DNA of 43,650 nt, taken from positions 1 to 43,650 of the forward strand of contig JAJHRF010000011.1 of assembly GCA_020832925.1 (NCBI GenBank). Direction: 5' to 3'. Source of the stretch: Desulfurococcaceae archaeon (GTDB lineage: Archaea > Thermoproteota > Thermoprotei_A > Sulfolobales > Ignisphaeraceae). The notes under the pieces are model-generated. The model ran no database searches. It was not told the DNA's origin and worked only from the letters and a program-made list of their open reading frames with translations. Shown piece by piece: positions 34,849 to 39,716 of this stretch. Numbering within the stretch: position 1 is the first letter of the stretch; each line of letters begins with the position of its first letter. The position numbers and the translations under genes are program-made.

Positions 34849-37740
34849 ATGAATGCAACAGTTAATGATCTTGAAGAGGCGATTAAAGATATTGCTGAGC
34901 TACTTAGTAAACTAGGTTTCGCAAAATTTACAGCTATACAATCTATAGCTATACCTAAGATATTGAAGCACGATTTAGATATCGTGATATCTGCTCCAAC
35001 AGGTAGTGGGAAAACTGAGGCAGCTCTTTTACCTACGCTCTACACTTTGTATAGAGGTGGTTATACCCCTGGACAAGGTATCAAGGTTATCTATGTAACA
35101 CCTCTCAGAGCTCTGAACAGGGATATCCATGTAAGGATAGAGAGAATATCTAATCTATTCGGTTACAGCTCTATGATATGGCATGGAGATACTCCGCAGA
35201 ACGCTAGGAAGAGGATACTCCGTACGCCACCCGATATACTCATAACCACTCCCGAAAGCTTACAGATATTGTTAATAAAGAAAGAGGTTAGGGAAAAACT
35301 AGGTACTTTACGTATTATTATCGTAGATGAAGCGCAAGAACTTTTTGGAAGTGAACGTGGAGCTGAACTTTCTGTAGCGTTAGAGAGAATAGATTCTGTT
35401 GTCGGTAAGCATGTCCGGAGAATCCTTATCTCAGCACCTGTAGGCGATGTTGATGCTATTGGTAGGTACTTTTTCGGCGGTAGGAGATACGATGTGGCTT
35501 TAGTTAAAGGTTCGAAGAAGTACTCTGTAGAGATTCTAGTGACTAGTGATAAATATATTGAAGGATTCTTCAGTGTAGAACATGTTTATAGCTATATATG
35601 TAGAGAAGTTTTACAAAATATGCAGGGGAGACAGGTTCTAATATTTGCAAACACTAGAACGTCAGCTGAAGAACTCGGATTCCATCTATCTAAGTGTCTA
35701 GAAAATAACGTAGCTTTGCATCACGGGTCTCTATCAAGAGACTTGAGGGAAGTTGTCGAAGCTATGTTTAGGAGAGGAGATCTCCAGGTTGTTGTAGCTA
35801 CGTCAAGTCTTGAGCTAGGTATAGATATAGGGGGTATAGATCTCGTTATACAGTATCTATCTCCTAGACAAGCTGTAAAACTAGTTCAAAGAGTTGGTAG
35901 AGCAGGTCATAGAGAATACTCTGAATCTAGAGGTATAATTGTTGTTCCACCTATAATTACAGAAATTATTGAGTCTCTCGTTATAGCTAGGAGAGCATCT
36001 GAAGGTCTTCTAGAGGTTGTAGTTCCGCATACAGAGCCCATAGACGTTCTCGTACATCAAGTAGTCGGTCTAACTCTCGAAAGAGAAGAGATATCGTTAA
36101 ACGATATCTACAACATAATTTCCAGAGCCACACCATTCAATAACTTAACTATATCAACATTAGAGAAGGTTCTAGATTTTTTAAACTCGTTGAACCTAGT
36201 TAAATGTGATAAAGAGATTTGCAGATCGACTAAGAAAGGTCTTCTCTACTACATAACCACCAATATGATACCCGATACAGTACACTATACAGCAAGATCT
36301 ATACTCGATGGCAAGCCTATAGGTCTATTAGATGAAGAGTTCGCTCTCACATGTTCTGAAGACGATGTAGTTGTTCTAGCTGGTAAACTTTGGAAACTCG
36401 TGAACATCGATATCGATAAGAAGGAGATTCTTGTAGCACCTATAGAGACTTCCGATCTTGCTGTTCTACCGAAGTGGGTAGGGGAGCTAATACCTGTTCA
36501 CAGAAACGTATCAAGAGAAGTCTGCGCATTCATTAGGAGGTTCTGTGGTTGCAAAGACCACGAATGCCTAGCCAACCTCTTTAACCAGTATAGAGTTGGA
36601 GAAAAACTCAAGGAATTCCTAATCAATAACAGGGAAAAACTGTGTAGAGTATATCCAAGAGACGATGCTCTAGTGATCGAGGTTAACAATCTTCTAAATG
36701 AGGGTAAGACCATGATAACGTTTTACACATGCCTAGGTTCAAAAGGATCAGAAACTTTCTCCTTAATTCTCTCATACTTGGTCAAGGAGCTTTTCGGGTA
36801 TTCAACAGCTTACAAATCTCACCAGCTAGGCACGGTTATACTTATTAACGGTTTAATCGATAAAAACGGTATTGCAAAACTTATTAAAAGTCTCTACAGT
36901 ATCTCTAAGCAACTAGATTCTGTTAAAGAAATTGTAAAGCGAGAGGTTATGAATACAGCCATCTTTAAGCATAGGCTTATATCTGTTGCAAAGAAGATGG
37001 GTGTTATAAGCAGTGATATAGGGTCTAGCGAGATTAGAAGAGTTGTAGAAGGATTGATGAACTTAGATCTAGTCGCTTTAGAAACTCTTCGAGAGGTTCT
37101 GACAGAGAAAATCGATTTAGATGAAGTGCTACAATATCTACAAAACATAGCATCGAAAAAACTAAAGATTAAGGTTGTGATAAGCCGTAAGCCTTCTCCT
37201 TACGCTGAAGAAATATCTTCTCTAGGTATACTTAGAACGCTTATCAAGCAATCTTTTATACCTAAAGACGTGATGATAGAGATAGTTAAACGGAGGCTTC
37301 TCGATAAAGAAATAAAAGTCTTGTGCACATCTTGTTTCTACACGTGGAGTTTTAAGCTAGCTCAAAAAGTCGAGAAATGCGAAAACATATTCGCATGCTC
37401 TATAGAATGTCCTCAATGCCGTTCTAGAGCTATAACATTAATCGATGACGAGGAGGAGATCAAGATACTTAGAAAAGCCTTGGACAAGATTAAGAGAAAC
37501 AACTTCGAGAAACCTAAGCTTCTAACAGTAGAGAAAGAGGTTCTAGAGAAACATAAAAAACTTGTAGATTTCGTCATGAGTCACGGTGTTGCAGGAGTTA
37601 TAGCTCTTCAAGGGATAGGTATAGGTGTTGAAACAGCGAAAAGAGTTCTAGCGAAATCGTACAATCTTGAATCTCTAATATTAAACATAATTGAGCAAGA
37701 GAAAACTTTTCTACGGACATGGAAGTACTGGAAGAAGTAA
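34849..37740 (+). CDS. Lhr-like superfamily 2 helicase
   Basis: A 963-residue helicase of the Lhr group. Walker A APTGSGKT at 49-56; TPLRALNRD (Ia); TTPESL (Ib); motif II DEAQ at 160-163 in place of the usual DEVH/DEIH; motif III SAPVGD at 195-200 in place of SAT; FANTRTSAEELG (IV); TSSLELGIDIGGIDLV (V); and QRVGRAGHR (VI). The C-terminal half carries a cysteine zinc site (CTSC...CPQC, about residues 825-865) and ends in a helix-hairpin-helix-like GIGIGVETAKRVL. Lhr proteins unwind RNA:DNA or branched DNA in repair. The unusual motifs II and III set this apart from the canonical Lhr-core and suggest a diverged paralogue. Confidence 0.88.
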   Translation: MNATVNDLEEAIKDIAELLSKLGFAKFTAIQSIAIPKILKHDLDIVISAPTGSGKTEAALLPTLYTLYRGGYTPGQGIKVIYVTPLRALNRDIHVRIERISNLFGYSSMIWHGDTPQNARKRILRTPPDILITTPESLQILLIKKEVREKLGTLRIIIVDEAQELFGSERGAELSVALERIDSVVGKHVRRILISAPVGDVDAIGRYFFGGRRYDVALVKGSKKYSVEILVTSDKYIEGFFSVEHVYSYICREVLQNMQGRQVLIFANTRTSAEELGFHLSKCLENNVALHHGSLSRDLREVVEAMFRRGDLQVVVATSSLELGIDIGGIDLVIQYLSPRQAVKLVQRVGRAGHREYSESRGIIVVPPIITEIIESLVIARRASEGLLEVVVPHTEPIDVLVHQVVGLTLEREEISLNDIYNIISRATPFNNLTISTLEKVLDFLNSLNLVKCDKEICRSTKKGLLYYITTNMIPDTVHYTARSILDGKPIGLLDEEFALTCSEDDVVVLAGKLWKLVNIDIDKKEILVAPIETSDLAVLPKWVGELIPVHRNVSREVCAFIRRFCGCKDHECLANLFNQYRVGEKLKEFLINNREKLCRVYPRDDALVIEVNNLLNEGKTMITFYTCLGSKGSETFSLILSYLVKELFGYSTAYKSHQLGTVILINGLIDKNGIAKLIKSLYSISKQLDSVKEIVKREVMNTAIFKHRLISVAKKMGVISSDIGSSEIRRVVEGLMNLDLVALETLREVLTEKIDLDEVLQYLQNIASKKLKIKVVISRKPSPYAEEISSLGILRTLIKQSFIPKDVMIEIVKRRLLDKEIKVLCTSCFYTWSFKLAQKVEKCENIFACSIECPQCRSRAITLIDDEEEIKILRKALDKIKRNNFEKPKLLTVEKEVLEKHKKLVDFVMSHGVAGVIALQGIGIGVETAKRVLAKSYNLESLILNIIEQEKTFLRTWKYWKK

Positions 37741-37845: not shown

Positions 37846-38118
37846 ATGGATATCATTGCATTAATAAAAGACTTGATAAACAAGATAGTTGTTGTATCTT
37901 GGCTACTCTTCTTACTAACGTGGATAATAGGATGGGCTATAAAGGGGGCTCCAATACCCTCTAGTAAAGTTAGGAGAGTTGGGCAAGGGCTTATCGAGGA
38001 CGCTATATGGGGAGCTTTCTGGGTTGCTATAGGAACCTCGATATTCTGGCTAATAACGTACATCTCCTCGGCTCTAGGAACAGCTATGCCTAACCCACCT
38101 ACACCACAACTACCTTAA
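37846..38118 (+). CDS. cedA1: CedA1-like pilin of the DNA-import system
   Basis: A 90-residue protein with two hydrophobic helices (about 13-32 and 52-74), joined by a short basic linker (KGAPIPSSKVRR), and a proline-rich tail. Two helices with a positively charged turn is the architecture of VirB2/TraA-type conjugative pilins, to which archaeal CedA1 is related. It is followed by a large membrane protein with a CedA-like layout and a small two-helix protein, the CedA1-CedA-CedA2 arrangement of the crenarchaeal DNA-exchange system. An 18-residue stretch from Pro36 recurs in CedA with ten identities. Assignment is by architecture and gene order. Confidence 0.65.
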   Translation: MDIIALIKDLINKIVVVSWLLFLLTWIIGWAIKGAPIPSSKVRRVGQGLIEDAIWGAFWVAIGTSIFWLITYISSALGTAMPNPPTPQLP

Positions 38119-38163
38119 TCAAGATGTGTACTCTATAAAATGGACTGAGCTTGGTTATAATCT

Positions 38164-39540
38164 ATGACTACGCTCTTAATAGCTTTCTACTTAGCTATCT
38201 TAACGTTTTATCTAGGGGTCTTAATATACGCTCTACCTATACCTCTCTCAGGGTTAAAGAGATGGGGCCCTAGACTGATAAACGATGCTTTCTTTATAGC
38301 AGCGTTAACCTCTTCCATAAAACTCATAATAGATTTTACAGACTATATAAGATCTGTTCTAGGTGGGGATTGGGATAACTTCTTCTTCCTAGTCAAAGGC
38401 GTGATGATATTCAGATCTCTATTCATACTTGCTTTAAGTAGTACAATAGCTTCTGCAACTAAGATCCTGCCAGGTTTTAGTAGAGTCGTATCCCCTTATC
38501 TCAATATCTTAACAACATCGTTGTACTTCTTAACGCTAATGTATTTCCTAGGTGTAGTTGTGTACTACGGTGTAGCAACACTATCTTCTCTAGGCGTAAC
38601 CCTAATGGCTATACCGTTTAGGATAGCTAGAAATGCAGGTGCATTCCTTCTCTCATTCGCACTAGTACTCTATGTAGCTCTACCTCTATATCCTCACTTC
38701 CTTTCGCTTCTAGTACTACCTCTACCAAGGACATCGTTAAATTTAGTCACAGTCTACGGTGATGTGAAGAACTTCCTCGGGCACAAAATATATAACGGAT
38801 ATTTAGGGGTGAAAGTAGGTGAAGAATACATAGGGCCCGCTAGGCTGGGAATTGATGGTAGGATGGCAATATTTATTCCGAGGGATTACATGGATAAACC
38901 AGCTACAATATATTTCGATGTTTCTGGCCATAGATTCTACACAAATGTTTCTGGAGAACCTCTAGCAACTCTCTGTAAATATACATTCTCAGTCTATATG
39001 TGTCGTATTGATATAGAGGTGAAAGGGCTTATCCACTATAGCAAAGGTATAGCTCTACACATACATCCACCACCGGTAAGTGTTGACAATATCTATGAGA
39101 CTTCAAACAGTGTAATCCTGACCTTGACTGCAGATACAGATACCAAGTTATATATATCGGCAGTAGAAGCGTACACAATTAACGCTATCATTGTTGACGG
39201 TGTAAAGGAAGTAAACGTGGATATGTATAAAGCTTACGAATGGAATTGGTACGGTATTAAAGGCGTTACTTACGTCATACCCCTCTCTAGCGGTCATCAC
39301 GAAATCTGTATAGAGTTCGATGTAAAATCAACTGAAGATTTAGAACCTTCAGTTGAGGATTTATATCCAGGTAAGCTATTTCAACGCGATATCTCGTTAC
39401 TTGAAATTCTAGACTTTCTATCTTCATCCGCTTATCTCGATATAATCTCATCTATTCTATACATATCGTTACTCTTCTCAGCATCTTACGGGTTATCAAA
39501 GGTGTTAGGAGGTGGGGCTAGGCTGAGGTTAACTCCATGA
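38164..39540 (+). CDS. cedA: CedA-like polytopic DNA-import channel protein
   Basis: A 458-residue protein: about six hydrophobic helices in the first 185 residues, a beta-rich presumably external domain (about 190-405) and a last helix (about 428-450). CedA is the VirB6-like inner-membrane component of the crenarchaeal DNA importer. The first hairpin carries PIPLSGLKRWGPRLINDA, which aligns without gaps with the CedA1-like linker. The gene lies 45 bases after the cedA1 candidate and its stop overlaps the next small gene by four bases. The ATPase CedB is not in the window, so import function rests on family inference. Confidence 0.62.
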   Translation: MTTLLIAFYLAILTFYLGVLIYALPIPLSGLKRWGPRLINDAFFIAALTSSIKLIIDFTDYIRSVLGGDWDNFFFLVKGVMIFRSLFILALSSTIASATKILPGFSRVVSPYLNILTTSLYFLTLMYFLGVVVYYGVATLSSLGVTLMAIPFRIARNAGAFLLSFALVLYVALPLYPHFLSLLVLPLPRTSLNLVTVYGDVKNFLGHKIYNGYLGVKVGEEYIGPARLGIDGRMAIFIPRDYMDKPATIYFDVSGHRFYTNVSGEPLATLCKYTFSVYMCRIDIEVKGLIHYSKGIALHIHPPPVSVDNIYETSNSVILTLTADTDTKLYISAVEAYTINAIIVDGVKEVNVDMYKAYEWNWYGIKGVTYVIPLSSGHHEICIEFDVKSTEDLEPSVEDLYPGKLFQRDISLLEILDFLSSSAYLDIISSILYISLLFSASYGLSKVLGGGARLRLTP

Positions 39541-39716
39541 ACTTCATATCATCTCTACGAGGTAAAGTCGTTCTATTAAACATACTCATAATATCTATGT
39601 ATATACTAACTGTGGTTAGAGAATCGAGAACTCCTAGCATAATCGATATTGTTACACTTGTAAGCCTTCCAATAGTATCATATATATTTCTAAGGAGATA
39701 TGCGGAAAATGTGTAG
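39537..39716 (+). CDS. cedA2: CedA2-like small membrane protein
   Basis: A 59-residue protein with two hydrophobic helices (about 10-27 and 36-52) separated by a short charged turn (RESRTPS). Its ATG overlaps the CedA-like stop (ATGA), so it is translationally coupled. In Sulfolobus, cedA is flanked by two small two-helix genes, cedA1 and cedA2; this gene takes the cedA2 position. It is short enough to be missed by usual ORF cut-offs. Confidence 0.6.
   Translation: MNFISSLRGKVVLLNILIISMYILTVVRESRTPSIIDIVTLVSLPIVSYIFLRRYAENV

What the first reader, a model, noticed from the sequence alone, without database searches (positions are those of the whole stretch)
37846..38295. CedA1-like pilin and CedA share an 18-residue hairpin signature
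CedA1 residues 36-53 and CedA residues 25-42 align without gaps: P-I-P, S5, R9, G11, L14-I15, D17-A18 are identical (10 of 18), in both cases in the loop and second helix of an N-terminal two-helix hairpin. The CedA channel may have arisen by fusion or duplication of a pilin-like hairpin, or the two may share a docking surface.
Basis: seen in the sequence. Interest (0 to 1): 0.68.

Follow-up and report, generated by a model that had tools for sequence, protein, structure and literature searches.

The report
Pilin and channel share one hairpin
In this heat-loving archaeon the tiny protein that builds a DNA-uptake pilus and the membrane channel encoded next to it begin with the same two-helix unit, a true family relationship that was already published in 2023, although how often the pilus protein arose from the channel is still open.

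Summary
CedA1 (37846-38118) and CedA (38164-39540) share 10 of 18 identities, as stated. The match runs ungapped over the whole hairpin, CedA1 12-80 against CedA 1-69 (hhalign E 7e-11, score 67; best of 200 block-permuted controls 26). A CedA profile has one significant hit among 177,635 PDB sequences: the A. pernix CedA1 pilus (8dfu, E 3.5e-10). Across 113 CedA1 and 117 CedA sequences, nine of the ten shared positions are conserved or conservatively varied in both families; the serine is not. The refutation condition is not met.

The core idea is already published: Beltran et al. 2023 (PMC9905601) state that the CedA N-terminus is homologous to nearly the whole CedA1 pilin and that one evolved from the other.

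Beyond that: the duplication predates the class sampled. Three CedA-like operons outside it repeat the pilin-then-channel order, and the best tree groups hairpins by system rather than by role, but a single pilin origin is not rejected (AU p 0.14). A second loop of CedA resembles the motif only weakly. The docking idea remains untested.

The parts
37846..38118 (+). CedA1-like pilin, 90 aa; predicted helix 3-34, break 35-39 at P36-I-P38, helix 40-77 (in the read-through model)
   Evidence: NCBIfam NF041797 CedA1 105.1 bits, above its cut-off of 100; phmmer to 8dfu pilin E 4.2e-24; DSSP of model
37879..38085 (+). Part of CedA1 (residues 12-80) homologous to the CedA N-terminus
   Evidence: hhalign E 7e-11, 69 ungapped columns; 5.1e-11
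37951..38004 (+).
38164..39540 (+). CedA-like channel, 458 aa: helices 2-23, 29-65, 70-101, 105-148, 156-183, beta-rich domain about 194-387, helix 412-450
   Evidence: NCBIfam CedA 125.7 bits over residues 3-185, below the equivalog cut-off of 330; AlphaFold model, mean pLDDT 92.3
38164..38370 (+). CedA N-terminal pilin-like hairpin (residues 1-69)
38236..38289 (+).
38611..38652 (+). Second conserved loop of CedA (residues 150-163, IPFRIARNAGAFLL; P151 and G159 invariant) that resembles the motif; internal repeat not shown
38743..39342 (+). Beta-rich, presumably extracellular domain of CedA (about residues 194-393), absent from the short CedA of family f11

Best explanation
CedA1 is the pilin and CedA the VirB6-like channel of a Ced-type DNA-import machine, and their shared sequence is common descent by gene duplication. 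The pilin is essentially the free-standing form of the channel's first hairpin, or the channel carries a pilin-like hairpin at its N-terminus. In both, two membrane helices are joined by a short loop with the pattern P-I-P-x4-K-R-x-G-x2-L-I-x-D; by the positive-inside rule the loop faces the cytoplasm while the protein is in the membrane (inferred). In the pilus the same loop should face the lumen (inferred from bacterial pili). The loop is probably kept in both because the same machinery handles it: the membrane-insertion route, and recruitment of pilins onto the ring of channel hairpins at the pilus base. Shown: homology, its extent, conservation, tandem order. Inferred: topology, function of the loop, docking. 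The confidence given is for the homology by duplication; for the docking and recruitment role I would say 0.4.
For: Profile-profile E 7e-11 over 69 ungapped columns, score 65-67 against a permuted maximum of 26. CedA profile to the 8dfu pilin E 3.5e-10, the only significant hit in the PDB. CedA1 finds CedA in about 20 genomes by plain phmmer. The CedA profile also finds CedA1 in the same genomes, typically at E 1e-8 to 1e-13. NCBIfam cross-hits. Shared conserved columns. Gene order CedA1 then CedA, 2-61 bp apart, in the 86 pairs found. Helix breaks fall at the same aligned place, 35-39 and 24-28, an offset of 11. Published: the same homology, and a weaker VirB2/VirB6 match. R388 co-evolution places the VirB2 recruitment site on VirB6 helix 1, supported by mutants.
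Against: Pilin-specific invariant residues (W19, W26, W30, E51, W59, G63, F67) are not kept in CedA, so CedA's hairpin is not a pilin that could simply enter the filament. The own-pair excess in identity is only about 1% of positions and one of 130 shifted registers exceeds it. In one family the two genes are unlinked, so adjacency is not obligatory. Loop function and docking are not tested.
Confidence: 0.9

Rival explanations
1. The similarity is convergence: two unrelated two-helix membrane hairpins with a proline turn and basic residues that insert in the same orientation.
For: Two-helix hairpins with basic loops are common; a third loop of CedA resembles the motif without a shown common origin.
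Against: 69 ungapped columns, shared G, T, P-x-P, K and D columns beyond hydropathy, E 7e-11, and no match to any other membrane protein seen in 60 genomes searched with CedA1. Block permutation that keeps local composition does not reproduce it.
Confidence: 0.03
2. One ancient duplication gave a pilin lineage and a channel lineage before all these systems split; present differences are simple divergence.
For: Within the class, CedA1-CedA identity does not rise with relatedness of the genomes (0.24-0.26 in all well-filled bins); a single clade of all pilins is not rejected (AU p 0.14).
Against: The best tree puts pilins of the distant operons with the G511 channel (97/96) and Ced pilins with Ced channels (94/91), 12.9 log units better than one pilin clade. 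Pairwise scores go the same way for the window's channel and for the G511 channel.
Confidence: 0.45
3. The pilin was derived from, or repeatedly homogenised with, the channel hairpin of its own system, so hairpins cluster by system.
For: Trees; G511 pilin KFVPGVSR against its channel RFLPGVSR; small own-pair excess, marginal against the register control.
Against: 69 columns, three distant operons in the test, AU p 0.14; composition or long branches may contribute; G519 rows are too divergent to place.
Confidence: 0.35

Closest known systems
Ced system: CedA1 pilin and CedA channel (Aeropyrum pernix, Sulfolobus)
   Same: CedA1 passes the NCBIfam equivalog cut-off and matches the 8dfu pilus protein at E 4.2e-24; tandem CedA1-CedA; the CedA1/CedA homology itself is published (PMC9905601).
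   Different: CedA here is 458 aa with an added beta-rich domain and scores 125.7 bits, below the CedA cut-off of 330; that model is 259 positions long, the length of the short form.
Bacterial VirB2 pilin and VirB6 (type IV secretion)
   Same: Beltran et al. report that VirB2 and VirB6 of Agrobacterium also match each other, with lower significance; the VirB2 recruitment site is placed on VirB6 helix 1 (PMC9259494).
   Different: Not compared directly here; no sequence match to bacterial T4SS chains appeared.
Ted system (TedC pilin, TedA channel) of Thermoproteales
   Same: Published as the same kind of system.
   Different: Not identified in these searches; the published TedA-CedA link needed HHpred.
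CedE (channel paralog in Saccharolobus)
   Same: CedE model also matches window CedA (93.1 bits, residues 4-181) and CedA1 (27 bits).
   Different: The single-protein search found only one CedA-type channel in this genome.

Membership tests
CedA1 pilin | Sequence match above the curated equivalog score | tested here: met
   NF041797, 105.1 bits against a cut-off of 100
CedA1 pilin | Two helices, no signal peptide cleavage, polymerises with lipid into a pilus | tested here: inconclusive
   Two predicted helices; close to the 8dfu pilin; assembly and processing not testable here
CedA channel | Sequence match above the curated equivalog score | tested here: not met
   NF041796 125.7 bits against 330; the model is 259 positions long and matched residues 3-185, so this is a long relative of CedA, not a member by that cut-off
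CedA channel | Polytopic membrane core with gene next to CedA1 | tested here: met
   Five N-terminal helices plus one C-terminal; adjacency here and in the 86 pairs found
Ced system | CedB ATPase in the same genome | tested here: inconclusive
   Best CedB-model match C49:21536-22519, 124.1 bits, below the cut-off of 700
Ced system | DNA import on DNA damage | not testable with these tools
   Needs a genetic assay
VirB2/VirB6 | Detectable homology to bacterial proteins | not tested
   Taken from PMC9905601

The most novel reading that the evidence does not exclude
Type IV secretion pilins were made more than once from, or are kept matched to, the first hairpin of their own channel, so pilin and channel loops co-evolve within each system and the channel hairpins act as the first ring of the pilus lattice.
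Probability: 0.2. Interest if true: 0.65.

Novelty: already known. Interest (0 to 1): 0.35.

Why it matters
The homology explains how a filament can grow from a channel, if the channel presents the same unit as the pilin. That core is published. What remains open, and is sharpened here, is direction and number of origins: the best tree groups hairpins by system in operons the Beltran paper does not mention, which larger sampling could decide. A caution also follows for co-evolution studies: apparent VirB2-VirB6 helix 1 coupling could partly reflect homology between the two proteins (inference).

Tried and rejected
A first Pfam guess was the wrong family; Pfam gives no match over its cut-off for either protein. 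Internal repeat inside CedA: CedA1 against the rest of the membrane core scores 14.1 against a null 95% of 15.4; hairpin 1 scores 20.2 against a null maximum of 18.4 but over nine columns only; left as unproven. Recent gene conversion within the class: cross-genome identity is flat with relatedness, so rejected as a general explanation. The own-pair excess was considered as co-evolution; the shifted-register control leaves it marginal, 1 of 130 shifts as high. A CedA1-CedA read-through was folded as a stand-in for the complex, but no contacts can be read from the output, so it is used only for helix boundaries. Foldseek on CedA gave nothing below 0.001; the top rows were mostly beta-domain proteins and no T4SS protein was among the 50 shown.

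Full report
Observation. CedA1 (37846-38118) and CedA (38164-39540) lie in tandem on the plus strand, in the same frame, 45 bp apart. Ungapped matches of this quality occurred in 1 of 2000 block-shuffled controls. The relation extends over the hairpin: hhalign aligns CedA1 12-80 with CedA 1-69, no gaps, E 7e-11, and the block-permuted maximum is 26.3 against 65-67 observed. The CedA profile's only significant PDB hit is the A. pernix CedA1 pilus protein, E 3.5e-10.

Specificity. Searching 60 genomes in six frames with CedA1 alone returned CedA1 in 49, and the second matches, E 3.5e-9 to 9e-4, fall in the N-terminal part of CedA frames. The reverse search with the CedA profile over the phylum returned CedA1 in the genomes that hold CedA. 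NCBIfam models made by others cross-match in the same way.

Over 113 CedA1 and 117 CedA sequences the shared columns are A18/A7, L21/L10, L24/L13, T25/T14, G29/G18, P36/P25, I37/I26, P38/P27, K43/K32, R44/R33, G46/G35 (or A), L49/L38, I50/I39 and D52/D41. In 76 long CedA sequences the six invariant columns are G18, P25, P27, K32, P151 and G159: four of the six are in the pilin-like hairpin. Pilin-specific invariants, mainly tryptophans and E51, are absent from CedA, so the membrane faces have diverged while the loop has not.

What is known. Beltran et al. [quoted passage not shown] The finding is therefore a rediscovery in a further genome. I found no other paper in the library that develops it.

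Timing. Among 85 pairs, CedA1-CedA identity averages 0.258 within a genome and 0.249 between genomes and does not depend on relatedness. So the event is older than the class. A small own-pair excess survives removal of near-copies (permutation p 0.001), but 1 of 130 shifted registers is as high, so part or all of it may be amino-acid composition.

Distant systems. CedA-like channels were found outside the class in G212 and G218, named Caldarchaeum and Terraquivivens by the genome scan, and in G511. In each, a small hairpin protein precedes a channel of about 280 aa, and a second, larger channel-like protein follows; in G218 a VirB4/CedB-like ATPase follows that. Pilin and own channel hairpin match strongly in G511 (score 90 against a shuffled median of 31), only marginally in G212 (p 0.05) and not significantly in G218 (p 0.16) by the same test. 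The best hairpin tree groups Ced pilins with Ced channels (94/91) and the other pilins with the G511 channel (97/96), but a single pilin clade is not rejected (p-AU 0.138), with only 69 columns. A G519 operon has a similar layout but rows too divergent to place.

Structure. AlphaFold of CedA is confident (mean pLDDT 92.3): helices 2-23 and 29-65 with the break at P25-P27, further helices, a beta-rich domain at about 194-387 and a last helix. The read-through CedA1-CedA model (mean pLDDT 82.1) breaks CedA1 at 35-39, the equivalent place. Contacts could not be extracted.

Mechanism and limits. I take descent by duplication as shown. The function of the conserved loop is inferred: cytoplasmic in the membrane, lumenal in the pilus, probably the part handled during insertion and recruitment. 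R388 data that place the VirB2 site on VirB6 helix 1 (PMC9259494) fit, with the caution that homology could itself contribute to such couplings. Direction of the duplication, number of origins and docking are open.

Noticed in passing
window 38743-39342 (CedA residues about 194-393): CedA here is about 460 aa with a beta-rich, presumably extracellular domain; members of family f11 (probably Sulfolobaceae) have mostly 253-303 aa forms without it. Foldseek gives only weak matches to Gram-positive pilin and other beta-sandwich proteins.
   Followed up: partly
window 39537-39716: A 59-aa ORF overlapping the CedA stop codon, apparently with two hydrophobic stretches; a weak match (E 5.6e-5) lies directly after CedA in one same-genus genome (G002). 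Possible CedA2-like protein; not found in most relatives.
   Followed up: partly
L242, L243, L241, L244: Operons outside the class with order pilin, short CedA-like channel, larger second channel-like protein (1174 aa in L243), and in L243 a VirB4/CedB-like ATPase; the G212/G218 type is in 2 of 43 genomes of its class, so probably on mobile or patchily inherited elements.
   Followed up: partly
G022, G032, G051 (family f6): CedA1 and CedA are far apart on the contig or on different contigs in this family, unlike the tandem order elsewhere.
   Followed up: no
L096 (G109): The pilin and channel loops are unusually alike (ALKGLPIPL..VKK.G.R...DGV in both); gene conversion or chance not resolved.
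   Followed up: no
window 34849-37740: The gene upstream of CedA1 encodes an Lhr-type helicase (Pfam DEAD, Helicase_C, DEAD_assoc, WH_Lhr).
   Followed up: no
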